Positions 4,575 to 20,007 of a DNA stretch of 64,000 bases are shown here, piece by piece; the first letter of the stretch is position 1; every line of letters begins with the position of its first letter. A model generated the notes under the pieces. The model made no database searches. It saw only the letters and a program-made list of their open reading frames with translations, and was not told where the DNA came from. Source of the stretch: Crocinitomix algicola (lineage in GTDB: Bacteria; Bacteroidota; Bacteroidia; Flavobacteriales_D; Crocinitomicaceae); contig NZ_LYPF02000001.1 in NCBI RefSeq assembly GCF_001661595.2, positions 1 through 64,000 on the forward strand, read 5' to 3'. The position numbers and the translations under genes were made by a program.

Positions 4575-5522
4575 TTATCCTTCTTTTGCAGCCAAATATC
4601 TTTCAGCATCTAAGGCAGCCATACATCCAGTTCCTGCTGCAGTAATCGCTTGGCGATATACATGGTCGGCAGCATCTCCTGAAACAAAAACACCATCAAT
4701 ATTAGTTTTAGAGGATCCTGGTTTATTAATGATATAACCTGTTTCATCCATGTCTAACCATCCTTTAAAAATATCAGTATTCGGCTTATGACCAATTGCA
4801 ACGAAGAACCCTGTTGCAGGAATTTCTTTCGTCTCTCCAGTTACATTATTTTTCACCTTAACACCGGTTACGCCATTTCCATCTCCTAATACTTCTTCCG
4901 TTTCAGTATTGTATAAGATTTCAATATTCTCAGTGTTTTTTACACGATTAGCCATAATTTTCGAAGCACGGAATTCATCTCGGCGAACTAACATGGTAAC
5001 CTTGGTACAAAGTTTTGACAAATAATGGGCTTCTTCACATGCCGAATCTCCAGCTCCAACTATCACAGTCTCTTGCCCTCTATAAAAGAAACCATCACAA
5101 ACAGCACATGCCGAAACTCCTCCGCCTATTTTTAAATAATGCTGCTCTGATTCAAGTCCTAAATATTTTGCCGATGCACCTGTTGAAATAATTATGGTGT
5201 CCGCATGAATTTCAGTTGTTTCATCCACCCAAACTTTGTGAACAGGTCCTGTAAAGTCAACCTTAGAAACCCAGCCTGAACGTACATCTGTATTGAATCG
5301 TTCTGCTTGTTTTTGGAGTTCAATCATCATTTCTGGTCCAGTGATTCCAGAAGGATAACCTGGGAAATTCTCAACCTCGTTAGTTGTTGTTAATTGACCA
5401 CCTGGTTGTAGTCCTTGATATAAAACCGGAGACATATTTGCACGCGCTGCATAGATCGCAGCTGTATATCCCGCAGGTCCTGATCCTATTATAAGGCATT
5501 TTACTCTTTCGATTCCACTCAT
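4575..5522 (-). CDS. trxB: thioredoxin-disulfide reductase TrxB
   Basis: A 315-residue low-molecular-weight thioredoxin reductase that passes electrons from NADPH through FAD to thioredoxin. Visible motifs are the N-terminal FAD-binding GSGPAGYTAAIYAARA, the redox-active CAVCDG near residues 140-145, and the NADPH-binding GAGDSACEEAHYL. The second FAD motif is GVFVSGDAAD. The redox CxxC lies in the NADPH domain as expected. A TATCTTTG box precedes it. Confidence 0.97.
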   Translation of the reverse strand: MSGIERVKCLIIGSGPAGYTAAIYAARANMSPVLYQGLQPGGQLTTTNEVENFPGYPSGITGPEMMIELQKQAERFNTDVRSGWVSKVDFTGPVHKVWVDETTEIHADTIIISTGASAKYLGLESEQHYLKIGGGVSACAVCDGFFYRGQETVIVGAGDSACEEAHYLSKLCTKVTMLVRRDEFRASKIMANRVKNTENIEILYNTETEEVLGDGNGVTGVKVKNNVTGETKEIPATGFFVAIGHKPNTDIFKGWLDMDETGYIINKPGSSKTNIDGVFVSGDAADHVYRQAITAAGTGCMAALDAERYLAAKEG

Positions 5523-5701: not shown

Positions 5702-7216
5702 ATGATAGATCAAAGCCTTTTCAAAAAGAAAGAATTATACCCATTTCAGAAAAAGATTGTAAATCAAATAATTAAAGAGCTTAACGACGAAGGTCCTAAC
5801 TTTAATTTGCTTTTTCAATTACCAACTGGAGGCGGAAAAACGGTCATCTTTTCAAATATTGCAAAGGAATATATCAATCGAACAAAGAAAAAAGTGCTGA
5901 TTCTTACGCATAGAATTGAGCTTTGTGTGCAAACTTCAAAACAGCTTATCGCCTTGGGTATCGAAAATAAGGTGGTAAATAGCATGGTGAAAAACCTTGA
6001 CGATCAGGATAAATATAATTCCTTTACGGCAATGGTTGAAACACTAAATAATCGTCTTCAGGATGATAGTGAATTTATAAAAAACATTGGATTGGTAATC
6101 GTAGATGAGGCACACAATAACTCATTCAGAAAAATCTTTCAATATTTTCAAGAAGTCAATATTCTAGGGGTTACTGCAACACCTCTAAGTTCAAATAAAA
6201 CATTGCCGTTAAAGGATAATTACGATAAATTAATCGTTGGTGAAAGTATAAAGTCCTTAATAGAAAATGGATACCTTTCCGATGCCGAAACTTATACTTA
6301 TGACGTAAACCTGCACGGACTCAAAATTGGAGTAAATGGTGATTTTACTGTAAGTTCATCCGATAAAGTGTACAGTAATTATTTCATGCAAGAAAAATTA
6401 TTATTTGCTTATGAAGAGGTTGCAGTCGGTAAAAAAACCTTAATTTTTAATAGTGGAATTGAATCGTCTCGTTCGGTATACGAATTGTTCAAAAAACACA
6501 ATTATAAAGTACGCCATCTGGACAGTACTTTCGGTGAAACGGAACGAAAAGAGATTCTAAAATGGTTCAAAGTGACACCTGGTGCAGTTTTAACTTCAGT
6601 TGGTATTTTAACCACTGGGTTTGATGAACCAACTGTTGAAACCATCATTTTAAATAGAGCAACAAGGTCATTAACCCTTTATCACCAAATGATCGGAAGA
6701 GGTTCTCGAAAACTTGAAAACAAAAGCTCTTTCCAAGTCATTGATCTAGGAAATAATGTTCGAAGATTTGGTTATTGGCAAGAATATATTGATTGGCAAG
6801 ACGCCTTTAACTATCCAGATCGCTTTTTAGAAGCGAGATTAAGTGAAGAGGATGATATGATGTTTGAAGCAGCATATGAATTGCCTCGAAATCTAAAAGA
6901 TCGCATTAAATCTCCGGCAAAATTGGAAGAATTTTCAATGAAACAGGTTTACGAAGAATGTATTGATGCCGGTAAAAAAGGTAAAGATGCAGTAGATATC
7001 TCATTGGATAATCACTTTGAAGTTGTTGCTGAAAATTCGGAAGATATGTATGATGGCTTACTTCTATTAGAGGCGCTTCAAGACGATATCGAAAGAAGAT
7101 TAAAGCATTACACCAAATGCATTACAAAAGCAACTGACAGTTATCTAAATTGGTTAAAAGAAACGTATAACCGTCAATTGAGTCAACGTATTCGGTCTGA
7201 ACTGGATGCCGAATAA
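5702..7216 (+). CDS. DEAD/DEAH-box superfamily 2 helicase
   Basis: A 504-residue SF2 helicase of the SSL2/type III restriction helicase-like group. It has a Q-motif-like start (LYPFQKKIV), Walker A PTGGGKT near residue 44, motif Ia LTHRIEL, DEAH Walker B VIVDEAHN and motif III GVTATPL. The second RecA domain has TLIFNSG and TTGFDEP, and motif VI is HQMIGRGSR. A C-terminal tail of about 130 residues has no recognisable domain. No methylase, nuclease or other defence partner is adjacent, so a role in DNA or RNA metabolism is as likely as defence. The specific substrate is unknown. Confidence 0.9.
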   Translation: MIDQSLFKKKELYPFQKKIVNQIIKELNDEGPNFNLLFQLPTGGGKTVIFSNIAKEYINRTKKKVLILTHRIELCVQTSKQLIALGIENKVVNSMVKNLDDQDKYNSFTAMVETLNNRLQDDSEFIKNIGLVIVDEAHNNSFRKIFQYFQEVNILGVTATPLSSNKTLPLKDNYDKLIVGESIKSLIENGYLSDAETYTYDVNLHGLKIGVNGDFTVSSSDKVYSNYFMQEKLLFAYEEVAVGKKTLIFNSGIESSRSVYELFKKHNYKVRHLDSTFGETERKEILKWFKVTPGAVLTSVGILTTGFDEPTVETIILNRATRSLTLYHQMIGRGSRKLENKSSFQVIDLGNNVRRFGYWQEYIDWQDAFNYPDRFLEARLSEEDDMMFEAAYELPRNLKDRIKSPAKLEEFSMKQVYEECIDAGKKGKDAVDISLDNHFEVVAENSEDMYDGLLLLEALQDDIERRLKHYTKCITKATDSYLNWLKETYNRQLSQRIRSELDAE

Positions 7217-7545: not shown

Positions 7546-8895
7546 CTATTTTACCATTAACTTATGTGTAGTTGTAGCAGCATCATTTCTAACGATGATT
7601 TGATAAATACCTGTTTCAAATTGAGCCACATTAATTTGTTTTACATTTCCATTTGCCGAATATACTTTTTCTCCGGTCATTGAAAAGATTTCAATTTGAG
7701 CATTAGGATTTACAGCAACTGTGATAAAATCACTCGCAGGATTCGGGAAAAAAGATAGTGCTGCTTCATTTTCTTCAACACCTACAGCACCAGTTGTTAC
7801 CACGTCTTCTTCCATTCTAGGAAATATTTTCACTTCGTCAAACGATAGGAAAGTTACCCCAGTTATATTATAGAAATTACCCATTGTTGCCGTGTAAGAA
7901 TAGATTTGATCATCAATTAATCGAGCTCCTGATCCATCATTCACTTCAAATTGACCAAATCCAGCATCAGCATTCGTGCATTCTGCGTCTAGAACTCGAA
8001 CTAGTACTGCTTCATATTCTTCATTTGCAGCATCCAAAGTACTTACATCAACCGGTGCAGGTAATTCGTTATCAGAACTTAGAACATTGATCTCTGAAAC
8101 ATAACTCATCTCAGTTAAACCGTAGTATTCAACAACTTTTCCTGTTACCGTTACTTCATCTCCTAAACTTAATTCAGACCCGTCAGCATAAACATAAATT
8201 CCATTCCAAGCTCCTTCACCGTCTTGAATAAAGAATTTACCTTCATCACTTCCAAATTGGAAAACTCCGGTTACAATTCCTGTCGTCTTAACAACCTCCT
8301 CAGCGTATGGAGAATCGTGTGGTGCGTCTGGAGCATATTGGATATCATAAATTGAAACTTCCTCCACAATAACAGGTTCTCCAACTCCAATAGCAACTGA
8401 ATCAATCATTATTCCAATTAATTCATCTGTATTTCTTACTGATAGAATAAATTCTGCAGCTTCACAACCTTCAGGCATAGTAACAGATTGACTAACCATT
8501 GTAATTTCACCGGCAGTTTCCGCATAAACATCAATGTAATCATTATAAAACCATCCCTCTTCCGTTGCGTTATAGAATCCAGATCTTAATTCGGACCCTT
8601 CAGCTCCAGTTAACCAAATTTTAATTTCATAGGTTAATAACTCCGTTACAGCAACTTCTTCAGTTGTAAATCTTTTATGACTTCCTGATGCATTAATCAA
8701 TTGAGCCATAGAAGTTCCGTGTTCCGCGCCCATATCAATTTCTGTTACATTTTCTGGATCAATACTTGTTTTTGACCCCATCCATCCATCAGGATTTCCG
8801 TCTGTCCAAGAGCTAAGATCACTCTCGAAAACCATTTGTCCATAACTTGTAAATCCAAGCGCTAGAACAGCTATAGAAGTAAATAATTTATTCAT
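7546..8895 (-). CDS. type IX-secreted protein with OB-fold domain
   Basis: The 449-residue protein has a signal peptide ending GFTSYGQ and is predicted to cross the outer membrane by type IX secretion. Its C-terminal domain (about residues 375-449) has the type A pattern FFPNPASD, GEKVYS and GIYQIIV, ending HKLMVK. The middle (about residues 180-290) looks like the OB-fold modules found in exported nucleases such as ExeM/NucH: TTGIVTGVF, GKFFIQDG, LGDEVTVTGKV. Residues 20-170 resemble a carbohydrate-binding-like jelly roll. It has no nuclease motif. It is the last gene of the receptor operon, 32 nt after the DUF5689 lipoprotein, suggesting a secreted binding protein. Confidence 0.82.
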   Translation of the reverse strand: MNKLFTSIAVLALGFTSYGQMVFESDLSSWTDGNPDGWMGSKTSIDPENVTEIDMGAEHGTSMAQLINASGSHKRFTTEEVAVTELLTYEIKIWLTGAEGSELRSGFYNATEEGWFYNDYIDVYAETAGEITMVSQSVTMPEGCEAAEFILSVRNTDELIGIMIDSVAIGVGEPVIVEEVSIYDIQYAPDAPHDSPYAEEVVKTTGIVTGVFQFGSDEGKFFIQDGEGAWNGIYVYADGSELSLGDEVTVTGKVVEYYGLTEMSYVSEINVLSSDNELPAPVDVSTLDAANEEYEAVLVRVLDAECTNADAGFGQFEVNDGSGARLIDDQIYSYTATMGNFYNITGVTFLSFDEVKIFPRMEEDVVTTGAVGVEENEAALSFFPNPASDFITVAVNPNAQIEIFSMTGEKVYSANGNVKQINVAQFETGIYQIIVRNDAATTTHKLMVK

Positions 8896-8927
8896 AATCT
8901 ATCATTTTAATTTAACATTTAAAGCCT

Positions 8928-10169
8928 TTATCCTCGTATAACAATATTGTCTAATTCCCAGGTACTTCCGTCTGATCCTGATCCAGTATATTTAAAGCCA
9001 ACGTAAACATTTTCCCCAATGAACGCTCCCAAAGGAATGTCGGTCGAATTAGCCCATGTGAACCCGCCTCCAGAGGCCGTAAAAGGAACTTCCGTCCAAG
9101 TACCTTGATCATTAGGATTACTTGATCCATCGTAATCAGTCGAGATATAACATTGTAAAGCCGGTCCTGTATAATTCATCGCATTGTCAAAATTAAGTAC
9201 AGGACTGTCTCCAGCTGTTAAATCAACAGGAGAAGAAATCAACCAATTTTCACAAGCAATATTTGTTCCGTCAATATAATTTTTAATTACGGCATAATCG
9301 TTCGGTGCACCACCGGCACTACTAGTTTCCCAAAATACTTCAGGTCCTAATACAGAATAGGTTGTCCATCCCGAAGAAGTGATTTCACCATCATCGAAAT
9401 TTTTGGTTAATAGTAATCCTGGGAAGCGTGCGCCGTTGAGATTAATCTCGTTAAACGAACGAATAAGTAATTGAACTTCTCCATTAAAGTGGTTAACAAT
9501 ACACACCAGATTTCCTGAACCATTTGGGATTTCCTCATCGGCAAAAGCGGCGTAACCACTAGTCCTTACTTTCACGGTGTTCCCATCAGCATCTTCTAAA
9601 TAACGATCTTCGGAAATCAGGTTTTCGCCATCAGCAAAAGTCTTATTTAAATCTGGTTTAATGAATTGCACATTTTCCAATTTAACTAATTGAGACTCCT
9701 TTAATGCTGTAATTTCACCAATCTCTACAACCTCAGGGGTTAACCCATTATTTGTAGATTGTTTAATCACATTTAAATCAACGTCAACAGAATCTATTTG
9801 CAAAACTCCATTGTACTGATTTAAAATAGTTCCCTTTAAATAAATCCGAACCGAGTCTCCTTCATAAAGTCCCCCTCCATTTAACATTCGAACGTTTACA
9901 GCTCCTGTATGATCCTGCATGTATACATTCTTATATATGTTTCCGTCAGTTTCATCCATCGTTATAATTCCGTAAACCGATAAATCAGTTGATATCGAAA
10001 TAATTCCCCCTTCGGTCGCTTGCCACTCTCTTAATTCTGAAATTGTCATTGTTTCAGTCTCAGGAATGGTCGGTAATGGAGGTGTGTCGAATTCTCTTTT
10101 ACACCCTGCTACAAGTAATACAAGACTAAATAGTACCGGAATGAGATTGTTTATTTTTCTAATTTTCAT
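8928..10169 (-). CDS. DUF5689 lipoprotein, paralogue B
   Basis: A 413-residue lipoprotein (lipobox VAGC, Cys22). The N-terminal half (about residues 40-240) fits DUF5689, an OB-like module with SVYGIITMDETDGNIYKNVY and GDSVRIYLKGTI. The C-terminal part, from about residue 250, resembles choice-of-anchor J or MAM-like beta-sandwich domains (PVLNFDNAMNYTG, VGFKYTGSG). No enzyme motif is visible. It starts directly at the end of its paralogue without spacing and shares its complete architecture. A location on the outer membrane, probably surface-exposed and serving the receptor encoded upstream, is inferred from the operon. Confidence 0.82.
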   Translation of the reverse strand: MKIRKINNLIPVLFSLVLLVAGCKREFDTPPLPTIPETETMTISELREWQATEGGIISISTDLSVYGIITMDETDGNIYKNVYMQDHTGAVNVRMLNGGGLYEGDSVRIYLKGTILNQYNGVLQIDSVDVDLNVIKQSTNNGLTPEVVEIGEITALKESQLVKLENVQFIKPDLNKTFADGENLISEDRYLEDADGNTVKVRTSGYAAFADEEIPNGSGNLVCIVNHFNGEVQLLIRSFNEINLNGARFPGLLLTKNFDDGEITSSGWTTYSVLGPEVFWETSSAGGAPNDYAVIKNYIDGTNIACENWLISSPVDLTAGDSPVLNFDNAMNYTGPALQCYISTDYDGSSNPNDQGTWTEVPFTASGGGFTWANSTDIPLGAFIGENVYVGFKYTGSGSDGSTWELDNIVIRG

Positions 10170-11405
10170 TTAACCGTTTATTATAATATTATCAATTTCC
10201 CAAGTTCTACCGCTACTATCAGTCCCAACATATTTAAAAGCAATATGAACATTATTTGAAAGGTACGCTGATAAATCAATTAGACCAGAATTTACAAATT
10301 CAAAATCACCTGATGACCATGTAGCGGATAGTTCAGTCCATGAGTAATCGTTTGGGTTACCCGTACCTGGATAATCAGTGGAAACTAAAATTTTTAAAGG
10401 ATCACCACTGTAGTTGTAGGCATTGTCAAAGCTTAATGAAGCCGATTCGGAAAGGCTTAAGTCCATACTCGGAGATACAAACCAACTCTCACAAGCCGTA
10501 TTACCTCCATCATAATTAGAAATTACACCGTATGGTTTATCTTCCCAGCTACCTAATGTGCCAATTTCCCACTCATGAGAACCGATAACCTGTTGAACTG
10601 TCCATCCACCAGAGGTTAGGTCGTCATCATTAAAATCTTTTACTAAAAACTCTCCCGGTCCACGAGGCCCTTCTAATTTACTTTCTTCAGGAGATCGCAG
10701 AATAAGCTGTAAATCCCCATTGTACTCACTTACAATGCAGACCATCGAACCACTTCCAGTAGGTAAGGTGTCGCCTGCAAAATCAGCAAATCCACTCGTA
10801 CGTATGTAAAGACTGTTGCCATCAAAATCTTCGAAATACCTGTTTTGGGCATATTGGTTCACAACATCCGCAAATGTTTTATTGAACTCAGAAGCTTTGA
10901 ATTGAACATCATTTAATTGAATTAATCGTGATTCGTGTATACTTAAATCAATTTCTGGAATTGTTAAAACTAATGGAGCAAGTGCAACATCACTTTTTTG
11001 AACAATGATGTTTTTATCGGTATCAACATTATCAAGTTGAACAACTCCACTGAATTCACTTAAAATTGCTCCATTTAAGGCAATTCTTACGGAGTCACCT
11101 TGTTGTAAGTTTGATGAACGGGTTAAGCGAACATTTATCGCGGCATCACCATCTTGAAGATAAATGTTTTTGTAAATATTACCGTTGTTTTCATCCATCG
11201 AAACAATTCCAAAAACAGATATTGAATCTTCAAAAACCAATGATCCGTATTGCGCTTGCCATGCACGCAAAGTATCTATTGTCACAATATCACCATCTGA
11301 CAATTTCTTTACAGGTGGTGTATCAGGTTCCTTTTTGCAGCTTTCCAATAATGGTAAAAGTGCTAAGAATAATAAGGCGTATTTATTGATTATTTTCATG
11401 TTCAT
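10170..11405 (-). CDS. DUF5689 lipoprotein, paralogue A
   Basis: A 411-residue lipoprotein (lipobox LESC) with the same order of domains as the downstream gene. The DUF5689 OB-like module has SVFGIVSMDENNGNIYKNIY and GDSVRIALNGAI. A beta-sandwich follows, ending with the shared (T/R)WE(L/I)DNI motif. The two proteins are clearly tandem paralogues that have diverged. The start is either the first ATG (11405) or the second at 11399, giving MKIINKY. The gene lies 4 nt after the TonB-dependent receptor, so a receptor-lipoprotein partnership like SusC/SusD is plausible, although there is no SusD homology. Confidence 0.82.
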   Translation of the reverse strand: MNMKIINKYALLFLALLPLLESCKKEPDTPPVKKLSDGDIVTIDTLRAWQAQYGSLVFEDSISVFGIVSMDENNGNIYKNIYLQDGDAAINVRLTRSSNLQQGDSVRIALNGAILSEFSGVVQLDNVDTDKNIIVQKSDVALAPLVLTIPEIDLSIHESRLIQLNDVQFKASEFNKTFADVVNQYAQNRYFEDFDGNSLYIRTSGFADFAGDTLPTGSGSMVCIVSEYNGDLQLILRSPEESKLEGPRGPGEFLVKDFNDDDLTSGGWTVQQVIGSHEWEIGTLGSWEDKPYGVISNYDGGNTACESWFVSPSMDLSLSESASLSFDNAYNYSGDPLKILVSTDYPGTGNPNDYSWTELSATWSSGDFEFVNSGLIDLSAYLSNNVHIAFKYVGTDSSGRTWEIDNIIING

Positions 11406-11409
11406 GCTA

Positions 11410-13932
11410 TTAGAATCGTAATGTTGCCATTATAAAATAATTAAGTCCATATAAATACCCAAGTTTTGGAGGGAATTTATTGATATTCTGTGTGTCAAAT
11501 CGTAATTGCTCATATCCACCTGTAATAAAACTAGTGTTGTTGGTAAGGTTTGAAACATTTACGTTGATATTTAGAAAGTAGTTGTTAATCTTAAATGATT
11601 TACCAGCGAATAAATTGAGGGAATAACCATTCTCGAGTTTTGTTTGCTCAATGGTTTCAAGGTATTGAGGGTCAGACTCAACAAATCCAGCAATGGATTC
11701 TTCCGTTCTTCTGTCTGGATTGGGATCCAAGTAGATATCTGCAAAATAGTTGAAGTTTACACCGGCAAACCAATATTTCTTACCGCTATACTTCAAACCA
11801 AACGAAGCTGCGGATTGAGGCATTCCTCCAATTTTATAGTTTTGTAAGTAGATGGTTTTATCTTTTGCCAACTGCTCGGCAGAGTTGTCAACATAAATCG
11901 ATGCAGTAGGTCTCGAGTTGTACAAATGTTGTCCAACAGCAACCACCGCGTTACCAGTTAAACCACCGAAAATGGTTCCATCTACACCAAATTCAATCCC
12001 TTGATGAAAATAATCAACGTCTTCCATTACATAATTAATGAATGAATTGTATTCATCATGATAAAAACTTCTCGACCAAATGGCATCTTTACGTTCGGTG
12101 TAATAGTAGGTGAAACGTAATTTCAGTTTAGGGTAACGCAAGATGTAATTAAGATCTCCAGTATAAATGGTTTCATTTTTTAAATCATCCACCATTACAT
12201 TTCTTGTTCTTGGAGAGATAAAAGCTGATCGTGAAGTTGGTGCTTCTGTAAGATAAGCAGCATTTGCTGTGATGTATTGACGACCTGATAGCTTGTATGT
12301 CGCGCCCCCTTTAACAGCATAGTTCACAAAGTTTTTACTTTCAGATTTTCCTAATGAATTGTCTGGAAATAATCCGGTTTGAAATAACCCTTCTCTATAA
12401 AAATGTTCATTCGAAAGTTCAAGTGCTGCATAATAGTCAATTTTCTTTGTGGTATAATTGAGTTGGCCAAAAGCAGTAGCATTAATATTGTAGATATAAT
12501 AATTATTGGCGTAAACATCCCCTTCTTTCACAATTCTATTTGGATTCTGAAGATCGCTTTGTGCTGCATTTGGATCTATAAAATCCTGTTCAGCAAATCG
12601 ATTTACGTCTACCCAAAAATCACCGCCCAATAAATCGTCTATGGTGTTATAATAATGGTTTCGTTGAGCCTGTCCAAATACTCCTGTATGAATTGATAAA
12701 TTGTCTTTTTCATAATTGTACACCGAAGAAATTCCTCCCGATAGTAGGTTGTTCCAACGAGTTTCTACAATGTATTTTGATCGTAATCCCTCAGCTAGAA
12801 CTGTACCATTTTCATCTTTTAAAGTGTACAAATTTTTACTATTAGCAAAATACAATGCATCCCATTGAATTTGACGCGATTCCTCATTTTGCCAATTCAT
12901 AAACATTCTTTGAGCATTTACATCATCGTTAATACTTTCATAATAAGAGGGTAAATACTTATAATAATCTGGTCTCGGATCTTTTGCATCGTACCAGTTC
13001 AACGCCGTTTGGCCATATTTCCCAAAACTACTGCTGAGAGAGGTTTTTAACGAAGAATTCGTGTTGATTTTCCAATCATGACTCAACGCAATTATTGGCA
13101 TGTGCGAGTCAGTGTTTCTAGAGTTCCTTTTTACTTTTGTTCCATCTTCTTGGGTTTGATATCCCCAATATGAATTGTAGAAGTTATCACCAGAAAGCTC
13201 ATAAGTTTCAAGCGTTGATATACTCGATTTACCTCGTTTGGTAGGCGCTCCCAAAATAGATAGATTTAAACTATGATTTGCGTTAATCTTTTTCTCTGCG
13301 GCTAAAAAGTAACCATATGCTTCGTAATAAGTTCCGTCAACATATCCTTCTTTCGCGAAACGAGATGATAGAGAAAAGGCAAATGCCCAACCATTAGCTT
13401 GCATTCCTGTACCGTACGTGTACATTAATCTGTTCCGATATGCTCGATTTGTTGCAGCATATGAAAGACGTGACCCTTTTCGAACCCCTGTTGCTTTTGC
13501 ATTGATGTTCGAATAACCTCCAATTCCACCAAAATGGTAGGGATTGTCGGTTAACCAATTTTTTGTCTCTGAGTAACGGGTAATATCATTCAAACCACCC
13601 CATTTATACCATGTACCGTACCCAGTTTCCAAGTCATTCATAGGGATACCATTTAATAAAATCATTGTCTTATCGGATTGGTAACCACGAATTTTAAATC
13701 GAGCAGGACTGAAGTTAAATCCAGCAGTTGCAGCGAAAACATCCCGCGAGCTTTGTAAAAGTCCGGAAATATTACCAGCGCTACCACTGCTATTTTCACC
13801 GTCTTCTAATGTGGTGACAAAAACAGGAGTGTTGGTTAATAATGTGTCTTCCTTTTCTTCTGTTGTTGTTTGTGAAAAATTAACAGAACTGAAGGTAATC
13901 AGTGAAAATACAAGCGTAAGTTTCTTATTCAT
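11410..13932 (-). CDS. TonB-dependent outer membrane receptor, first gene of the DUF5689 operon
   Basis: An 840-residue outer membrane beta-barrel. A signal peptide ends at SSVNFSQ. The plug domain follows, with FVTTLEDGE, FKIRGYQSDKTMILLNGIPM and the region up to about residue 190. The remainder alternates aromatic beta-strands and ends with the barrel signature MATLRF, terminal Phe included. It lacks the N-terminal carboxypeptidase-regulatory-like domain common in SusC. Such receptors import large or scarce substrates using TonB energy. The neighbouring secreted nuclease and nucleotidase genes suggest nucleic-acid fragments or a phosphate-containing substrate; this is inferred from context only. 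Confidence 0.9.
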   Translation of the reverse strand: MNKKLTLVFSLITFSSVNFSQTTTEEKEDTLLTNTPVFVTTLEDGENSSGSAGNISGLLQSSRDVFAATAGFNFSPARFKIRGYQSDKTMILLNGIPMNDLETGYGTWYKWGGLNDITRYSETKNWLTDNPYHFGGIGGYSNINAKATGVRKGSRLSYAATNRAYRNRLMYTYGTGMQANGWAFAFSLSSRFAKEGYVDGTYYEAYGYFLAAEKKINANHSLNLSILGAPTKRGKSSISTLETYELSGDNFYNSYWGYQTQEDGTKVKRNSRNTDSHMPIIALSHDWKINTNSSLKTSLSSSFGKYGQTALNWYDAKDPRPDYYKYLPSYYESINDDVNAQRMFMNWQNEESRQIQWDALYFANSKNLYTLKDENGTVLAEGLRSKYIVETRWNNLLSGGISSVYNYEKDNLSIHTGVFGQAQRNHYYNTIDDLLGGDFWVDVNRFAEQDFIDPNAAQSDLQNPNRIVKEGDVYANNYYIYNINATAFGQLNYTTKKIDYYAALELSNEHFYREGLFQTGLFPDNSLGKSESKNFVNYAVKGGATYKLSGRQYITANAAYLTEAPTSRSAFISPRTRNVMVDDLKNETIYTGDLNYILRYPKLKLRFTYYYTERKDAIWSRSFYHDEYNSFINYVMEDVDYFHQGIEFGVDGTIFGGLTGNAVVAVGQHLYNSRPTASIYVDNSAEQLAKDKTIYLQNYKIGGMPQSAASFGLKYSGKKYWFAGVNFNYFADIYLDPNPDRRTEESIAGFVESDPQYLETIEQTKLENGYSLNLFAGKSFKINNYFLNINVNVSNLTNNTSFITGGYEQLRFDTQNINKFPPKLGYLYGLNYFIMATLRF

Positions 13933-13981
13933 ATTTGATTTGCTAAAATCACTTTTTATTATGCGTGAATAAAAAGCAGTG

Positions 13982-13989
13982 CAAATTTA
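13982..13989 (-). promoter_or_regulatory. Bacteroidetes -7 promoter box for the receptor operon
   Basis: On the minus strand TAAATTTG fits TAnnTTTG, 49 nt upstream of the receptor ATG, in the 159-nt divergent gap shared with the exported nuclease gene. Confidence 0.45.
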
Positions 13990-14091
13990 CGAATAATATT
14001 TTCTTTGTGCTGGAATGGGTTTTATTTTTGTGGATAACTTAATCGTTTGTTAACATAGTATTAAGGTGTGTAGATTTTAAGTTAAATTATT

Positions 14092-15183
14092 ATGTATAAA
14101 TTTGAACTCTTAAAAAAAACAGAATTAATGATACGCATGAATTATCTTATTATTGGAATCCTAACAATTTTTTATACAGGTTTTCAAAAGCAAGTTTATG
14201 GTCAAGAACAAAAGTCTTACAAAGTTGCCTGTGTCGGTTTTTATAATCTCGAAAATTTGTTTGACACAGAGGACGATCCAAAGATAAAGGATGAAGAATT
14301 TATGCCCAACGGTAGGTATGCATGGACAAACGAAAAATACAACAATAAGCTAAACAACATGGCTGATGTTATTGCAGATCTTGGGACATCTAGTTCACCA
14401 GACGGAATGGCTGTGCTTGGAGTAAGCGAAGTAGAAAATAAAAAAGTTCTTGAAGATTTAGTAAAGCAGGAAAAAATTGCTCACCGGAATTATAAAATTA
14501 TTCATTTTGATTCTCCCGACAGAAGGGGTATTGATGTTGGATTGTTATATCAAGAAAAATATTTCAAACCGACCAATTCCGTTTCGTACGAATTAAAATT
14601 TAAAGATTTTCCGGATTATTACACGCGAGATCAGTTGGTTGTTTCAGGTGAATTGGATGGGGATAAGATTACTTTTATAGTGGTACATTGGCCATCCCGT
14701 AGTGGTGGTCAGGCTGCTTCCGAACCAAGAAGGGTAGATGCCGCTAACCTTGGAAGACATATTGTAGATTCGTTATTGTTGAATGATCCAAACGCTCGAA
14801 TTGTTTTAATGGGGGATCTCAATGATGATCCAGTAGATAAAAGTGTTAAAGAAGCTTTGAGCGCAAAAGGAAAAATTTCAAAATTAAAAGAGAAAGACCT
14901 CTTTAATCCAATGTTTAGAAAATTTAAAACAGGGGATTGTACTTTAGCTTATCGTGATGCTTGGAACCTATTTGATCAGTTAATCATAAGCCAAGGTTTG
15001 CTTTCAAGAGATGAAACTGAATTTGTGTATCATCGAGCTTATGTATATAGTAAAGACTATCTTAAGCAAAAAGAAGGTCGATACAAAGGGTATCCGCTGA
15101 GAACGCATGCAGGAGGGGAGTATTTAAACGGGTATTCAGATCATTTTCCAGTGTACATGGTGTTGAAAAAATTGGCTAATTAA
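14092..15183 (+). CDS. exported endonuclease/exonuclease/phosphatase family protein
   Basis: A 363-residue enzyme of the EEP (DNase I/exonuclease III-like) fold with an export signal. Catalytic elements occur in order: VGFYNLENLFDTED, the metal-binding Glu in GVSEVEN, the His in VHWPSRSGG, Asp and Asn in MGDLNDDP, and the general-base pair in SDHFPVY. These residues suit Mg-dependent phosphodiester hydrolysis. The first ATG leaves 15 charged residues before the signal, so translation probably starts at the ATG at 14137 (MNYLIIGIL). It begins a three-gene run with the split nucleotidase, zero to one nucleotide apart, opposite the TonB receptor operon. Confidence 0.9.
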   Translation: MYKFELLKKTELMIRMNYLIIGILTIFYTGFQKQVYGQEQKSYKVACVGFYNLENLFDTEDDPKIKDEEFMPNGRYAWTNEKYNNKLNNMADVIADLGTSSSPDGMAVLGVSEVENKKVLEDLVKQEKIAHRNYKIIHFDSPDRRGIDVGLLYQEKYFKPTNSVSYELKFKDFPDYYTRDQLVVSGELDGDKITFIVVHWPSRSGGQAASEPRRVDAANLGRHIVDSLLLNDPNARIVLMGDLNDDPVDKSVKEALSAKGKISKLKEKDLFNPMFRKFKTGDCTLAYRDAWNLFDQLIISQGLLSRDETEFVYHRAYVYSKDYLKQKEGRYKGYPLRTHAGGEYLNGYSDHFPVYMVLKKLAN

Positions 15184-15942
15184 ATGATTCGACCTATTAA
15201 ATACGGACTGCTTACCATTCTCGTTTTTTTCTTAAGTTGTTCGACAAATGAATATACGCATTATCAAAGTAAGAACAACGATATTATAAGCGACACTAGT
15301 AACGTTGCTCTTGATCAATTAATTTCACCGTATCGTACAGCTGTTTCAGCTAAAATGGATCAGAGAATAGGTTATGCTAAAACGTCTATGTTTAACGGTT
15401 CTCCTGAATCAATTCTTGGAAATTTCGCAGTAGATGTGGTGTATAAATGTGGTGTTAACCTTCAGCAACCGTTTTATGAAGAAATGACCAAAGACAATAC
15501 AATTGCCTTGATTAATTTTGGAGGTCTTCGATCACCAATAAATGAAGGGAATATTAGTGTAGGAAATATTTTCGAATTAATGCCATTTGATAATACAATT
15601 AGTTTCGTTAAAGTTCCGCCAAATGGAATTCTCCAAATGTTAAGTTATCTCAAAGAAAAAAATGGACAACCAATCAGTAATGGAATTGTTAAGGTATTTG
15701 ATCATAAAATTGAGTTATATGTAAACGACAAATTGTTTGCCGTTGAAAATGAAGATCTTTATATCATAACGTCGGACTATCTTGCTGGTGGTGGTGATAA
15801 AATGACGTTTTTAAAACAAGCATCGAAAAAATATGATTCAGGTGTCCTAATGCGGGATGCATTCATCAATCATATTGTAGAATGTGATACAGTTGAGATT
15901 CCGAAAATCGAGGGACGTATACAATTTAATTCAGGGATCTGA
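15184..15942 (+). CDS. 5'-nucleotidase C-terminal (substrate-binding) domain lipoprotein
   Basis: A 252-residue lipoprotein (lipobox FLSC, near residue 19) matching only the C-terminal domain of 5'-nucleotidases. It has the signature around INFGGLRSPINEGNISV, then a VGNIFELMPFDNTI segment and the closing SDYLAGGGDKM loop. In one-piece nucleotidases this domain binds the nucleoside and follows the catalytic metallophosphatase domain. Here it is a separate gene placed before its catalytic partner and overlapping it by one nucleotide. The lipid anchor suggests the partner assembles with it at a membrane surface. Confidence 0.88.
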   Translation: MIRPIKYGLLTILVFFLSCSTNEYTHYQSKNNDIISDTSNVALDQLISPYRTAVSAKMDQRIGYAKTSMFNGSPESILGNFAVDVVYKCGVNLQQPFYEEMTKDNTIALINFGGLRSPINEGNISVGNIFELMPFDNTISFVKVPPNGILQMLSYLKEKNGQPISNGIVKVFDHKIELYVNDKLFAVENEDLYIITSDYLAGGGDKMTFLKQASKKYDSGVLMRDAFINHIVECDTVEIPKIEGRIQFNSGI

Positions 15943-16862
15943 TGGAAAGAAGAAAGTTTATTCGTAGTTTATCAGGAGCAACCATTGGGTTAGCCACTGT
16001 ATCAAGTGTTGGATTTTTTAGGAATCATAAAAAGCTTACAATTCTCCATACAAATGACACCCACTCACATATCGATCCCTTCCCTTTAAGTCATAGTAAA
16101 TATCCTGGTAAAGGTGGAGTAGAAAACCGGCTAAAGTTAATTCAAGATATTCGTGCTCAAAATAAACACGTTTTATTATTAGATGCTGGAGATATATTTC
16201 AAGGAACTCCATACTTTAATGTACATAAGGGCGAACTTGAATTAAAGTTGATGACTGCAATGGGGTATGACGCAGCCACAATGGGAAATCACGATTTTGA
16301 TGCTGGTATTGACGGTTTTGAACGGGTAATGCATCATGCCAAATTTCCATTTTTATGCAGTAATTACGATTTTCGAAATACAATCCTAAAGGACAAAACC
16401 AAACCTTATCAAATATTTAAAAAAGGAAGCATAAAGGTGGGAGTTTTTGGTGTAGGAGTCGAGCTGGATGGCCTTGTTTCCCCCGATTTGTATAAGGAAA
16501 CACAATACATTAATCCAATAGAAAAAGCAAATCAAATTGCGAATCATCTCAAAAAAGAAGAAAAATGTAATTTGGTGATCTGTCTTTCACACTTGGGGTA
16601 TTCACCTCGGTTTAATAAATTCTGTGATCCTTTGTTGGCAAAAGAAACCGAAGGGATTGATTTAATTATTGGCGGTCATTCTCACACTTTTATGGAAAAA
16701 GCAGAAATGCATAAGAATAAAAATGGGTCACCAGTGCTCATTAATCAAGTTGGTTGGGCTGGATTATTTTTAGGTAGAATTGATTTTTATTTTGATGAAA
16801 AGGACGAACTCAATTCATTTTCAGGACTCCAGCTGAATACTAATTATGAATTAAAAACTTAG
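15942..16862 (+). CDS. 5'-nucleotidase catalytic metallophosphatase domain
   Basis: A 306-residue calcineurin-like metallophosphatase. The N-terminus MERRKFIRSLSG is a twin-arginine-type signal. The catalytic domain has every metal-binding motif: HTNDTHSH, DAGDIFQG, MGNHDFD, SHLG and GGHSHTF. It lacks the C-terminal nucleotide-binding domain, which is encoded by the preceding gene. The ATG overlaps the upstream TGA by one nucleotide, implying translational coupling and roughly equal amounts. With the neighbour it would dephosphorylate extracellular nucleotides or nucleotide sugars. The Tat-like signal suggests folding and metal loading before export. Confidence 0.9.
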   Translation: MERRKFIRSLSGATIGLATVSSVGFFRNHKKLTILHTNDTHSHIDPFPLSHSKYPGKGGVENRLKLIQDIRAQNKHVLLLDAGDIFQGTPYFNVHKGELELKLMTAMGYDAATMGNHDFDAGIDGFERVMHHAKFPFLCSNYDFRNTILKDKTKPYQIFKKGSIKVGVFGVGVELDGLVSPDLYKETQYINPIEKANQIANHLKKEEKCNLVICLSHLGYSPRFNKFCDPLLAKETEGIDLIIGGHSHTFMEKAEMHKNKNGSPVLINQVGWAGLFLGRIDFYFDEKDELNSFSGLQLNTNYELKT

Positions 16863-16950: not shown

Positions 16951-19900
16951 ATGAAAAAGCTGTTTTATTTGTGTGTAATTGTTTTATTTTCAAATGTTTT
17001 ACATGCTCAAGGTCCGTGGATAGATGCAGGACCAGATACATTAACTTGTCCACCTGACTGTATTGAATTGGAAGCTACTTTCGAAGGTACTGGGGCGACG
17101 ACAGATTATACTGTAGAAACCATTCCATTTGCTCCGGACACGCCAGGTGGTATTACACGTTCATTAACGGATGACTCAGGGGTCTCTGATATTGCAATTG
17201 GATTTGATTTTTGTTTTTATGGAAGTACATACTCTACTTTTAGTGTAAGTCCAAATGGTTGGCTAGGTTTTGGCGCCTTATCAACAATGTATGGTCCCGT
17301 TGCAATTCCCGATGCCGGATTTTCAACACCTAAAAATTGTATCATGGGTCCATGGCAAGATTTGAATCCTGGACTTGGAGGAACTGTAACAACTCAGACT
17401 TTGGGGGTTGCTCCAAATCGAAGATTAGTCGTGACTTGGGATGATGTCCCATACTTTTCATGTACAGGTGAACGAGGTACGCAACAAATCATTTTATACG
17501 AATCGACGAATATTATAGAAAACCACATCAGTGAAAAAATTATCTGTGCTGGTTGGGTTGGCGGAAGAGCGGTGCAAGGCATTCACAATGCGGCCGGAAC
17601 TGAAGCCGTGGCAGTCGCAGGAAGAAATAATACAGTTTGGGATGCCACGAATGAGTCTGTTCGGTATACACCTACTGGTGTTCCTGAAATAGAGTGGTAT
17701 GATGAAGCAGGCGTTTTAGTAGGAACTGGAGCGGAGTTTTCAGCATGTCCAGATGAACCGACAACTTACACCGTCCGTTTAATTTCTTGTGATGTTGAAG
17801 TAGCATCAGACGAAATTTTTATCGACATTGAATGTTGTGATCCTCCTTTAACTTCTTTTACTCCTCCGACTTGTTTTGGTGATTGTGATGGAACAGCTAC
17901 AGCGGAAGGTGTTGGTGTAGCTCCTTTCACGTATACTTGGGATGCTGCTGCTGGTGGTCAAACAACACCTACTGCAACGGGGTTGTGTGCAGGTACATAC
18001 GAAGTAACCGTGGTAGATGCTGAAGGATGTACGACTGTAACTCCGGTAACGGTTGAAGAGCCTTCAGAAATTACTGGTGGAGCAACTGAACTTTTAAACA
18101 TCTCTTGTTTTGGTCTAACAGACGGTTCTGTAAATGTTTTAGGAGCAGGAGGAACAGGTGAACTAACTTATGATATTGGCGCTGGACCGCAACCAACAGG
18201 GGTTTTTACAGACTTGGCTGCTGGAACGTATACAGTAACAATAGAAGATGCTAACGGTTGTACAGGAGAAGTTATTTTTGATATAGAAGAACCTGCTTTA
18301 CTAGAGTTTGATCTTGTAAGTGTAAACGATGTCTTATGTAATGGGGGGGCTGATGGAGAAGTAGTGATTAACGGAATTGGTGGAACCGGAGTTTATGAAT
18401 TTCAAATAGACGGTGGTGGGTATATGCCTTCAGGAACATTTGGTGGCCTTGCAGCAGGAACATATTTATTTGAAGTTAGAGATGAAAGAGGGTGTTTGGC
18501 CTCAATGGATGTTACGGTGAATGAGCCGACACCTTTGGTGCTAGATATTGTTAGTACTATAAATATTACTTGTTTTGAGGGGAATGATGGTGTAATTGAA
18601 GTTGCTGGGTCAGGTGGATTCGGTGCATTAACTTATTCAATTGATGGGGGGGAATTTGTACCGTCAGGACTTTTTGATGGGTTAACTGCCGGAACATATA
18701 CAATTGAATTAAAAGATGAAAACGATTGTTCAACCACTCAAACGATTGAATTAACCGAAGCGCCTGCGGTAGAAGTTACAGAGGTTTTAACGCATGAAAC
18801 CTGTGAATATGATTGTACTGGGCAGATTGAATTAATCCCTGAAGTTGGAGTAGCTCCTTATGAATTTAGTATTGATGGTTGTGCAACAAGTTCACCTTCT
18901 GGGTTATTTACAGGACTTTGTGCAGGTGATTACGATATTTGTGTGGTCGATGCAAACGGTTGTGAATACACGAGTACAGTAACAATTAATCTTGGAGCAC
19001 CGCCTTCATCAGCAGTAATTTATGAGTTCGGTAGAGATTTTTGTGTAGATGATGATCCTGTTCCAGTAAGTGCAGATTCTCCAGGAGGAGTTTATACAGG
19101 GCCTGGAATGGTTGGAAATATTTTTAACCCAGGATTAGCAGGTGTTGGAACGCATACCATTACTTATACTATTTCAGAAGGTTGTGGAGATATAGGGCAT
19201 TATACTTTGACAGTTCATGCTTTACCTAATATTTCATTTTTCGCAAGTGATTCTTCGGGTTGCGAATCTCATGAGGTAGAATTTTATTACACAGGTGAAG
19301 CAGGAATCGAATGTTTTTGGAATTTCGGAGATGGTACATCAGCAACAGTTTGTGGGGATGTAATACATACTTATACTGATGATGATGACTACGATGTAAG
19401 TCTGACAGTAACGACTGCTGCAAATAACTGTGTAGCAACACTTACAAAAACTGACTTTATAGAAGTATATAATCAGCCAATTGCAGATTTTGAATTCGAA
19501 CCAGAAACGACTACAGAATTAAAGACTGAAATTGATTTTATGGATAGGTCTTTTGGTCCTGAAACATGGGAGTGGATTTTTGATACGGAAGGATCATCTA
19601 CTGAGCAAAATCCATCATTTTTCTTCCCTCGAGATGTTGCAGATATATATGATGTAACATTGATGGTGAGTAATGCGGATGGTTGCGCGGATACAATAAC
19701 GAAACCGGTAAAAATAGCGGAGGAATATATGATTTATGTTCCTAATACGATTACGCCTGACGGAGATACTTATAACGAAGTGTTTAAACCTTACTTCAGA
19801 GGAATTGATATTTATAATTATTCGTTAAGAATTTATAATCGTTGGGGAGAATTATTGTTCGAGTCATACGATCCGTCTAAAGGATGGAACGGTACCTATG

Positions 19901-20007
19901 GAGGTGAAGTTGTTCAAACAGGAGTCTATATTTGGCATATTTCAACAGATGAAATTGAGACTGATCGAAAAATAGAGCATCAAGGACATGTAACCGTTTT
20001 AAGGTAA
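16951..20007 (+). CDS. SprB-repeat/PKD surface protein with type B T9SS sorting domain
   Basis: A 1018-residue secreted protein. It has a signal peptide (residues 1-19, ending VLHAQ), an N-terminal beta-sandwich with FSVSPNGWLGFG, and an Ig-like segment near residue 250. Five SprB-type repeats follow (about residues 293-685), then two PKD domains with WNFGDGTSATVCG and WEWIFD near residues 770-925. A gliding motility-associated C-terminal domain closes it: YVPNTITPDGD, LRIYNRWGE, GWNGTYGG, GVYIW. This type B signal targets the protein through type IX secretion, often with attachment by SprF-like partners, which are not in the window. A role as adhesin is likely. Confidence 0.92.
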   Translation: MKKLFYLCVIVLFSNVLHAQGPWIDAGPDTLTCPPDCIELEATFEGTGATTDYTVETIPFAPDTPGGITRSLTDDSGVSDIAIGFDFCFYGSTYSTFSVSPNGWLGFGALSTMYGPVAIPDAGFSTPKNCIMGPWQDLNPGLGGTVTTQTLGVAPNRRLVVTWDDVPYFSCTGERGTQQIILYESTNIIENHISEKIICAGWVGGRAVQGIHNAAGTEAVAVAGRNNTVWDATNESVRYTPTGVPEIEWYDEAGVLVGTGAEFSACPDEPTTYTVRLISCDVEVASDEIFIDIECCDPPLTSFTPPTCFGDCDGTATAEGVGVAPFTYTWDAAAGGQTTPTATGLCAGTYEVTVVDAEGCTTVTPVTVEEPSEITGGATELLNISCFGLTDGSVNVLGAGGTGELTYDIGAGPQPTGVFTDLAAGTYTVTIEDANGCTGEVIFDIEEPALLEFDLVSVNDVLCNGGADGEVVINGIGGTGVYEFQIDGGGYMPSGTFGGLAAGTYLFEVRDERGCLASMDVTVNEPTPLVLDIVSTINITCFEGNDGVIEVAGSGGFGALTYSIDGGEFVPSGLFDGLTAGTYTIELKDENDCSTTQTIELTEAPAVEVTEVLTHETCEYDCTGQIELIPEVGVAPYEFSIDGCATSSPSGLFTGLCAGDYDICVVDANGCEYTSTVTINLGAPPSSAVIYEFGRDFCVDDDPVPVSADSPGGVYTGPGMVGNIFNPGLAGVGTHTITYTISEGCGDIGHYTLTVHALPNISFFASDSSGCESHEVEFYYTGEAGIECFWNFGDGTSATVCGDVIHTYTDDDDYDVSLTVTTAANNCVATLTKTDFIEVYNQPIADFEFEPETTTELKTEIDFMDRSFGPETWEWIFDTEGSSTEQNPSFFFPRDVADIYDVTLMVSNADGCADTITKPVKIAEEYMIYVPNTITPDGDTYNEVFKPYFRGIDIYNYSLRIYNRWGELLFESYDPSKGWNGTYGGEVVQTGVYIWHISTDEIETDRKIEHQGHVTVLR
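17832..19005 (+). repeat. five SprB-type repeats within the surface protein gene
   Basis: Five units of about 75 codons share the pattern C..GxxDG, GxxPYxYxID, SGxFxGLxAGTYxxxVxDxxGC and a final EP or AP. The second to fourth units are most alike. Divergence is high enough that recent duplication is not evident at the DNA level. Confidence 0.8.

What the first reader, a model, noticed from the sequence alone, without database searches (positions are those of the whole stretch)
7546..16862. Possible extracellular nucleic-acid or nucleotide capture locus
Seen: a minus-strand operon (TonB-dependent receptor, two DUF5689 OB-like lipoproteins, type IX-secreted OB-fold protein) faces a plus-strand operon (exported EEP-fold phosphodiesterase with intact catalytic motifs, then both halves of a 5'-nucleotidase). 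Known: EEP enzymes cut DNA or phospholipids; 5'-nucleotidases release nucleosides and phosphate; OB-like modules occur in exported nucleases. Inference: the block binds, cuts, dephosphorylates and imports nucleic-acid products, a DNA counterpart of a polysaccharide utilisation locus without a SusD protein. The receptor substrate is unproven.
Basis: partly seen in the sequence, partly recalled or inferred. Interest (0 to 1): 0.72.

Follow-up and report, generated by a model that had tools for sequence, protein, structure and literature searches.

The report
Bacteroidota outer-membrane DNA-uptake gene cluster
This gene cluster is most likely a pilus-free door through which a bacterium pulls outside DNA into the cell: its receptor and likely DNA-binding lipoprotein are relatives of two genes that a duck bacterium needs in order to take up and use foreign DNA.

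Summary
All seven genes are real and correctly placed. Nucleic acid as substrate is well supported; a nutrient locus is probably not the main story. The receptor and DUF5689 lipoproteins are homologous to RA0C_RS04915 and RA0C_RS04920 of Riemerella anatipestifer, whose deletion abolishes natural transformation (PMC8459023). The phosphodiesterase (EEP), divergent from the receptor, belongs to the conserved unit: 30 of 30 loci read in the window's order and 79 of 80 named Weeksellaceae/near loci, R. anatipestifer included. The window's genome has ComEC, DprA and DUF1343 genes but no secretin; its ComEC lacks the nuclease domain, so the EEP is my candidate for the missing strand-degrading nuclease (untested). 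A second architecture pairs another TonB receptor with DUF5689 fused to nucleases; it alternates with the first at one chromosomal site in two genera, and in the window's family both carry a 5'-nucleotidase pair. Best reading: a TonB-dependent, pilus-independent DNA-uptake module with a salvage add-on, a new variant of a little-studied published system. Against it: seven of 37 type-1 genomes show no ComEC. Feeding on DNA remains a serious rival; both may be true.

The parts
11410..13932 (-). TonB-dependent receptor (type 1), homologue of R. anatipestifer RA0C_RS04915; predicted outer-membrane DNA channel
   Evidence: Plug 24.7 bits; 32% identity over 863 columns, 390 bits to the R. anatipestifer protein; groups with it, apart from type-2 receptors, SH-aLRT 100, quick tree
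10170..11405 (-). DUF5689 + choice-of-anchor J lipoprotein 1, homologue of RA0C_RS04920; predicted surface DNA-binding partner of the receptor
   Evidence: 25% identity, 84 bits, to the R. anatipestifer protein
8928..10169 (-). DUF5689 + choice-of-anchor J lipoprotein 2, a paralogue (47% identical to lipoprotein 1)
   Evidence: two full-length copies in 5 of 30 order-level loci by the rows (window, L102, L103, L116, L120); one search printed 6 because L126 has one lipoprotein in two pieces
7546..8895 (-). type IX-secreted protein with a stretch like the N-terminal OB region of ExeM/NucH DNases but no nuclease domain detected
   Evidence: relative downstream of the receptor in 21 of 30 order-level loci
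13933..14091 (.). 159-bp divergent intergenic region shared by the receptor operon and the EEP operon
   Evidence: the TTTG-N16-22-TANNTTTG pattern I tried gave no match here
14092..15183 (+). exported EEP phosphodiesterase (PF19580), conserved divergent partner of the receptor; candidate strand-degrading nuclease
15184..15942 (+). 5'-nucleotidase C-terminal half (beside the locus only in the window's own family)
15942..16862 (+). 5'-nucleotidase N-terminal metallophosphatase half (beside the locus only in the window's own family)

Best explanation
The locus is the outer-membrane DNA-uptake module of a type-IV-pilus-independent natural transformation system of Bacteroidota, with a salvage add-on. 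The DUF5689/OB lipoproteins (and the T9SS-secreted OB-like protein) bind duplex DNA at the surface; the TonB-dependent receptor passes it through the outer membrane with TonB energy; the exported EEP trims it or degrades one strand in the periplasm; ComEC takes the other strand inward. In the window's family the 5'-nucleotidase pair turns released nucleotides into nucleosides and phosphate. Shown by others in a relative: receptor and lipoprotein are essential for transformation, and TonB affects it. Shown here: homology, synteny, the conserved EEP, presence of ComEC and DprA, no secretin found. Inferred: DNA passing through the receptor, DNA binding by DUF5689, surface position of the lipoproteins, the EEP acting on this DNA, and activity in the window's species.
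For: R. anatipestifer markerless deletions of RA0C_RS04915 and RA0C_RS04920 fell below detection (PMC8459023). Named R. anatipestifer locus L162 reads ComEC - 145-aa ORF - 542-aa ORF - EEP <> receptor - DUF5689 lipoprotein, which fits the published tag numbers RS04895 to RS04920. EEP divergent from the receptor: 30 of 30 order-level loci, 16 of the 19 class-level loci with a receptor, 79 of 80 named loci; lipoprotein next to the receptor 30/30, 19/19, 80/80. Window receptor groups with the Riemerella receptor and apart from type 2. Own genome has ComEC, DprA and DUF1343 (weak evidence, since the ComEC and DprA families also ring in 10 and 11 of 14 control genomes) and no secretin. tonBA or tonBB mutants transform less (PMC8383284 passages). 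Neither the own nor the R. anatipestifer ComEC hits Lactamase_B, and 0 of 31 ComEC ORFs checked has an HxHxDH-type motif, so a separate nuclease is expected. DUF5689 is fused to nuclease domains in type 2.
Against: No experiment on this species. Identities to R. anatipestifer are modest (32%, 25%, 41%). Seven of 37 type-1 genomes of the order show no ComEC match against 3 of the other 83 (p = 0.009); all seven are assemblies of one family, 84-95% complete, but a strict competence role would want ComEC. F. johnsoniae has the homologues yet was not transformable under the conditions tried, and another paper of the group suggests that its homologues might suffice for a pilus-type system (PMC7965970 passages). 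The authors ascribe the tonBB effect to iron. The EEP does not appear among the hits of the published transposon screen, and three class-level loci lack it beside the receptor. ComEC without the nuclease domain is not specific to type-1 genomes: the 31 ORFs include type-2 genomes. The 5'-nucleotidases have no obvious role in transformation.
Confidence: 0.62

Rival explanations
1. Nutritional DNA foraging: the locus binds, cuts, dephosphorylates and imports DNA fragments as phosphorus, carbon and nitrogen, without a genetic role.
For: 5'-nucleotidase pair attached in the window's family to type 1 (5 of 5 loci read) and to nuclease-armed type 2 (14 of 14 loci read); T9SS-secreted EEP next to the first EEP in 20 of 30 order-level loci; nucleases fused to DUF5689 in type 2; Bacteroidota reported as DNA degraders in sediment (PMC8289736 passages); ComEC not found in 7 of 37 type-1 genomes.
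Against: The only tested homologues that I found are essential for transformation; the 5'-nucleotidase pair is not found in 25 of 30 order-level type-1 loci nor in any of the 80 named loci (stretches of up to about 20 kb); no nucleoside transporter among the seven genes.
Confidence: 0.28
2. Phospholipid or organophosphate scavenging: the EEP acts like a sphingomyelinase and the receptor imports the products or another ligand.
For: Bacillus cereus sphingomyelinase and SmcL are among the top 50 fold matches of the EEP; the receptor substrate is unproven; the C-terminal domain of the lipoprotein resembles carbohydrate-binding jelly rolls.
Against: The best fold matches are TDP2 DNA phosphodiesterases (model pLDDT only 68.9); the partner receptor and lipoprotein have transformation phenotypes in R. 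anatipestifer; sister loci carry DNA/RNA nuclease domains.
Confidence: 0.06
3. Surface DNA clearance (detachment from DNA-rich matrix, or a barrier to phage or plasmid DNA) with no import.
For: Nuclease and OB themes, T9SS-secreted parts.
Against: A TonB-dependent receptor is, with its lipoprotein, the most constant member; no PADLOC defence family hit in the seven proteins at E up to 0.01.
Confidence: 0.04

Closest known systems
RA0C_RS04915/RA0C_RS04920 transformation operon of Riemerella anatipestifer (PMC8459023)
   Same: TonB-dependent receptor followed by a DUF5689 + choice-of-anchor J lipoprotein; divergent EEP upstream in R. anatipestifer too (L162); the receptors group together apart from type 2.
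   Different: No carboxypeptidase-regulatory domain detected in the window receptor, which the Riemerella protein has; two lipoproteins instead of one; extra T9SS OB-like protein; 5'-nucleotidase pair; ComEC lies on another contig of the window's genome instead of in the neighbourhood.
Type-2 loci found here: LTD-domain protein, TonB receptor, DUF5689-Endonuclease I or DUF5689-PLD protein
   Same: TonB receptor next to a DUF5689 protein; 5'-nucleotidase pair attached in the window's family; EEP attached in one genus.
   Different: Receptor in a separate group; DUF5689 joined to a nuclease domain, with a T9SS tail in the four proteins scanned; no EEP in 29 of the 31 stretches read, and in the other two (L245, L246) it runs in the receptor's direction.
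Sus-like polysaccharide utilisation loci (recalled)
   Same: Outer-membrane TonB receptor with lipoproteins and exported hydrolases.
   Different: No SusD family hit and no glycan-active enzyme family hit.
Type-IV-pilus DNA uptake of Gram-negative bacteria (recalled; PMC7965970 passages)
   Same: Ends in ComEC and DprA.
   Different: No secretin match in the window's genome (pilus ATPases not searched); uptake predicted through a TonB receptor.

Membership tests
R. anatipestifer-type TonB-receptor transformation module | receptor homologous to RA0C_RS04915 | tested here: met
   32% identity over 863 columns; grouped apart from type 2. L162 is another strain (CCUG25054); that its receptor is RA0C_RS04915 rests on gene order and domains
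R. anatipestifer-type TonB-receptor transformation module | adjacent downstream DUF5689 + choice-of-anchor J lipoprotein | tested here: met
   below the NF052645 subfamily cut-off (172 bits against 475), so the same kind but not the M949_1556 subfamily
R. anatipestifer-type TonB-receptor transformation module | required for transformation of the host | not testable with these tools
   no experiment on this species
R. anatipestifer-type TonB-receptor transformation module | ComEC, DprA and DUF1343 genes in the same genome | tested here: met
   one match each; these families are widespread (recA and comF not searched)
R. anatipestifer-type TonB-receptor transformation module | periplasmic helix-hairpin-helix protein like RA0C_RS02645 | tested here: inconclusive
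   a 287-aa ORF on contig C7 with two HHH_3 stretches (one under the cut-off) is a candidate; orthology not tested
R. anatipestifer-type TonB-receptor transformation module | no type IV pilus secretin | tested here: met
   no PF00263 match; six of 14 control genomes ring. Pilus ATPases were not searched
Sus-like polysaccharide utilisation locus | SusC/SusD pair | tested here: not met
   no SusD family among the Pfam/NCBIfam hits of the seven proteins
Sus-like polysaccharide utilisation locus | glycan-active enzymes | tested here: not met
   the enzymes found are EEP and nucleotidase families; one carbohydrate-binding model, CBM_4_9, gives 14.5 bits on the T9SS protein, under its cut-off of 25.9
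Extracellular DNA foraging locus | growth on DNA or induction by phosphate limitation | not testable with these tools
   needs culture

The most novel reading that the evidence does not exclude
Bacteroidota run natural transformation through a dedicated TonB-powered DNA importer instead of a pilus, and the divergent EEP is its strand-degrading entry nuclease, standing in for the beta-lactamase nuclease domain that their ComEC lacks. The importer exists in two interchangeable versions, one with a DNA-binding lipoprotein (type 1) and one with a secreted DUF5689-nuclease (type 2), which replace each other at the same chromosomal site, so that a lineage can switch between importing long DNA for recombination and chopping DNA for food.
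Probability: 0.3. Interest if true: 0.85.

Novelty: new variant of a known kind. Interest (0 to 1): 0.62.

Why it matters
How DNA crosses the outer membrane in Bacteroidota without a type IV pilus is open; one 2021 screen named a receptor and a lipoprotein, and left the step from duplex to single strand to an unidentified protein, with ComEC as a possible nuclease (PMC8459023). This locus shows that the pair has a third near-constant partner, an exported EEP, in the loci read across the class, which makes the missing-nuclease question testable by one deletion. The second architecture and the swaps at one site tie DNA uptake for recombination to DNA uptake for food, in a phylum reported to be a widespread DNA degrader in marine sediments (PMC8289736 passages).

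Tried and rejected
Considered and dropped: a SusC/SusD locus (no SusD); a defence locus (no PADLOC hit in the seven proteins); a shared Bacteroidetes-type promoter pattern (recalled; 6 matches in the window against 5.8 expected, none in the divergent region). Sequence search of solved structures gave no convincing match for the EEP or the receptor. The EEP model is poor in parts (mean pLDDT 68.9, three stretches under 50), so its fold ranking (TDP2 first, sphingomyelinases also listed) is weak evidence. The fold search of the lipoprotein lists tandem-OB proteins (P. abyssi RPA, Teb1, LEF-3, p204 HIN with dsDNA) beside jelly rolls (CBMs, Eph ligand-binding domains); query-normalised TM-scores are 0.31 at most in the 50 rows shown: compatible with DNA binding, not proof. 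A clade test that I tried at the end did not run.

Literature: 1 paper; 37 papers, 20 listed; 12; 12; 12; 5; 37, 20 listed; 4; 60, 12 listed. In these listings I saw no later paper on the receptor mechanism or on the EEP partner; those are my only grounds for saying that I did not meet it in print, and bioRxiv and most subscription journals are not in the library.

Rows dropped before counts: the order-level set is 30 of the 39 type-1 genomes (nine not fetched as long stretches); the class-level set is the 20 best NF052645 scores of 103 genomes with a match among 395. The tree used 29 of 30 order-level receptors (L129 is split), 19 of 20 class-level (L098 has no receptor in its 20 kb), 8 of 80 named loci, 30 of 31 type-2 (L246 is split). 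Type-2 gene order was read in 31 of the 52 genomes with a weak DUF5689 match, picked by hand. The first lipoprotein counts (28/30, 74/80) were an artefact of stop-to-stop ORF overlap and were recounted (30/30, 80/80). The one named locus without EEP (L187) has only 1.1 kb of contig before the receptor. ComEC motifs were checked in the own genome and in 30 of the 110 genomes with a match, on the longest ORF of each stretch, one of them short (525 aa).
Full report
WHAT IS THERE. Seven ORFs lie at the stated places. Four run on the minus strand: a TonB-dependent receptor (11410-13932), two lipoproteins with DUF5689 and a choice-of-anchor J domain (10170-11405, 8928-10169) and a type IX-secreted protein of which residues 204-301 match the first 108 positions of the ExeM/NucH DNase model (7546-8895). 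Three run on the plus strand: an exported EEP phosphodiesterase of PF19580 (14092-15183) and the two halves of a 5'-nucleotidase as separate genes, C-terminal half first (15184-15942, 15942-16862). A 159-bp region separates the divergent operons. DUF5689 occurs twice in the genome, both times here; PF19580 occurs twice, once here. Export of the EEP and the lipid anchors are my reading of the N-termini; no signal predictor was run.

THE LEAD. NCBIfam places both lipoproteins near a Riemerella anatipestifer family, M949_1556 (172 bits each, under that subfamily's cut-off of 475). A full-text search for DUF5689 returned one paper: a transposon screen for natural transformation in R. anatipestifer (PMC8459023; I read its Results and Discussion sections, and passages). 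Markerless deletions of RA0C_RS04915 (receptor-like outer-membrane protein) and RA0C_RS04920 (DUF5689 plus choice-of-anchor J) brought transformation below detection. The authors speculate that the lipoprotein binds DNA and the barrel passes it, and say that the duplex is turned into single strand by an unidentified protein, mentioning ComEC as a possible nuclease.

IS IT THE SAME THING. A scan of named genomes with an alignment of seven Weeksellaceae receptors kept the best 80 of 181 relatives, the first being R. anatipestifer CCUG25054 (L162) and R. columbina (L163). In L162 the order is ComEC, a 145-aa ORF, a 542-aa ORF (carboxyltransferase-like by eye, not scanned), EEP, then the receptor and the DUF5689 lipoprotein in the other direction. 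This fits the published tags from RS04895 (ComEC) to RS04920, so RS04910 should be the EEP (inference from order; the paper names RS04910 once, as the unaffected upstream gene). Window against L162: receptor 32% identity over 863 columns, 390 bits; lipoprotein 25%, 84 bits; EEP 41%, 271 bits. In a quick tree of 86 receptors the window's receptor falls with those of Riemerella and of other members of the class, apart from the type-2 receptors described below (SH-aLRT 100, midpoint root). In the window receptor no carboxypeptidase-regulatory domain is detected, which the Riemerella protein has; conversely Plug is detected only in the window protein.

HOW CONSERVED IS THE UNIT. In 120 genomes of the window's order, 39 have this receptor type (over 300 bits) and 37 have a strong DUF5689 match (over 98 bits), all of them among the 39. 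In 37 of the 39 the EEP match lies 175-581 bp from the receptor match; the two misses are receptor pieces on contigs of 3-5 kb. The EEP family alone is common (104 of 120 genomes). In fetched loci the EEP is divergent from the receptor in 30 of 30 order-level loci (of the 39 type-1 genomes), in 16 of the 19 class-level loci that have a receptor (of 20 taken for their lipoprotein score; three lack the EEP there, one lacks the receptor) and in 79 of 80 named Weeksellaceae/near loci; the lipoprotein is beside the receptor in 30/30, 19/19 and 80/80. EEP was not used to choose any of these sets. A second, T9SS-secreted EEP (PF03372) follows the first in 20 of 30 order-level loci, 1 of 20 class-level and 0 of 80 named loci (domains checked in two); the window has none. 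A relative of the OB-like T9SS protein is downstream in 21 of 30 order-level loci, the 5'-nucleotidase pair in 5 of 30, all five in the window's own family.

A SECOND ARCHITECTURE AT THE SAME PLACE. Fifty-two of the 120 genomes have a weak DUF5689 match; only one genome has both kinds (one-sided Fisher p = 1e-10, which ignores shared ancestry). I read 31 of these loci. All 31 have another TonB receptor beside a DUF5689 protein with a nuclease domain, Endonuclease-I-like in 16 and PLD-like in 15 (by similarity to two query segments; four proteins confirmed by Pfam; in L136 the protein is in two ORFs), and an LTD-domain protein that by its position lies beside the receptor; the two of these scanned carry T9SS tails. 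In the window's family the same kind of 5'-nucleotidase pair is attached (14 of 14 type-2 loci read, of 18 such genomes) just as it is to type 1 (5 of 5); in the other 17 type-2 loci it is not. In genus g23 two genomes have type 1 (L105, L106) and two have type 2 (L245, L246) between the same flanking genes (mostly 84-98% identical) with the EEP kept (87-88% identical); in genus g3 of the window's family, L113 and L123 (type 1) and L134 (type 2) share a flanking gene (67-71% identical; dipeptidyl-peptidase domains in L113) and the 5'-nucleotidase pair, while the EEP is missing from L134. So the two receptor cassettes seem to have replaced each other at one site at least twice; the direction is not known. 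In L246 the type-2 receptor is broken into pieces.

THE REST OF THE PATHWAY. The window's genome (99.94% complete) has one ComEC, one DprA and one DUF1343 match and no secretin match, and a 287-aa ORF with two HHH_3 stretches, one under the cut-off, that could play the part of RA0C_RS02645. ComEC and DprA are widespread families (110 of 120 genomes of the order for ComEC), so their presence says little alone. ComEC here and in R. anatipestifer has DUF4131 and Competence domains but no Lactamase_B hit at E up to 1, and none of 31 ComEC ORFs checked has the HxHxDH-type motif; these include type-2 genomes, so the lack is not tied to type 1. Published passages say that the beta-lactamase domain degrades the non-translocating strand and that S. 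pneumoniae uses the separate nuclease EndA instead (PMC12455585 passages), and that in Bacteroidetes DUF4131 was gained and mostly retained (PMC6299819 passages). A separate nuclease is therefore expected, and the EEP is the only enzyme nearly constant in the unit; its D242, N244 and H351 are invariant in 125 of 125. TonB matters in R. anatipestifer: tonBA or tonBB mutants transform less, though the authors explain tonBB by iron and suspect nutrient transport for tonBA (PMC8383284 passages). R. columbina is reported to prefer its own DNA (PMC7965970 passages).

STRUCTURE. The lipoprotein model (mean pLDDT 81.9) lists tandem-OB single-strand binders and a HIN-dsDNA complex as well as carbohydrate-binding and Eph-type jelly rolls among its fold matches, at low query-normalised TM-scores; two OB-like barrels and a jelly roll is my reading. 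The EEP model (68.9) is closest to TDP2 DNA phosphodiesterases, with a Bacteroides EEP (3mpr) and sphingomyelinases further down.

AGAINST. Seven of 37 type-1 genomes show no ComEC match against 3 of 83 others (p = 0.009); all seven are from one family, as assemblies 84-95% complete. F. johnsoniae, which has the homologues, was not transformable as tested, and its pilus-like homologues were thought possibly sufficient for a pilus-type system (PMC7965970 passages). The EEP is not among the hits of the published screen. The nucleotidases, the secreted second EEP and the nuclease domains of type 2 all point to digestion. I therefore keep DNA foraging at 0.28 and note that one uptake door can serve both ends.

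VERDICT. Observation confirmed; substrate class supported; purpose most likely DNA uptake of the transformation kind with a family-specific salvage add-on. The receptor-lipoprotein pair is published; the near-constant EEP partner, the spread beyond the order of Riemerella, the nuclease-armed alternative and the swaps at one site were not met in the searches named in Tried and rejected.

Noticed in passing
L245 and L246 against L105 and L106; L134 against L113 and L123: Two different TonB-receptor/DUF5689 cassettes occupy the same chromosomal site in genomes of one genus, keeping the neighbouring EEP (g23) or 5'-nucleotidase pair (g3).
   Followed up: partly
L131-L141 and L245-L264: Type-2 loci: an LTD-domain protein, a TonB receptor and a DUF5689-Endonuclease I or DUF5689-PLD protein, in all 31 loci read of 52 candidate genomes.
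   Followed up: partly
window 4575-5522: A thioredoxin-reductase-like gene lies about 6 kb from the receptor; a similar gene also lies near the locus in L102, L105, L245 and L246.
   Followed up: no
window 5702-7216: Helicase-like protein with matches (59 bits at best) to restriction and defence helicases in PADLOC; among the 60 loci a strong relative lies near the locus only in L102.
   Followed up: no
window 16951-20007: 1018-aa protein with SprB repeats, PKD domains and a type B T9SS signal, a likely surface adhesin directly downstream.
   Followed up: no
L246 11280-13926: Type-2 receptor split into several ORF pieces in one genome, a possible decayed copy or assembly error.
   Followed up: no
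L126 6747-8032: The DUF5689 lipoprotein of this type-1 locus lies in two ORF pieces.
   Followed up: no
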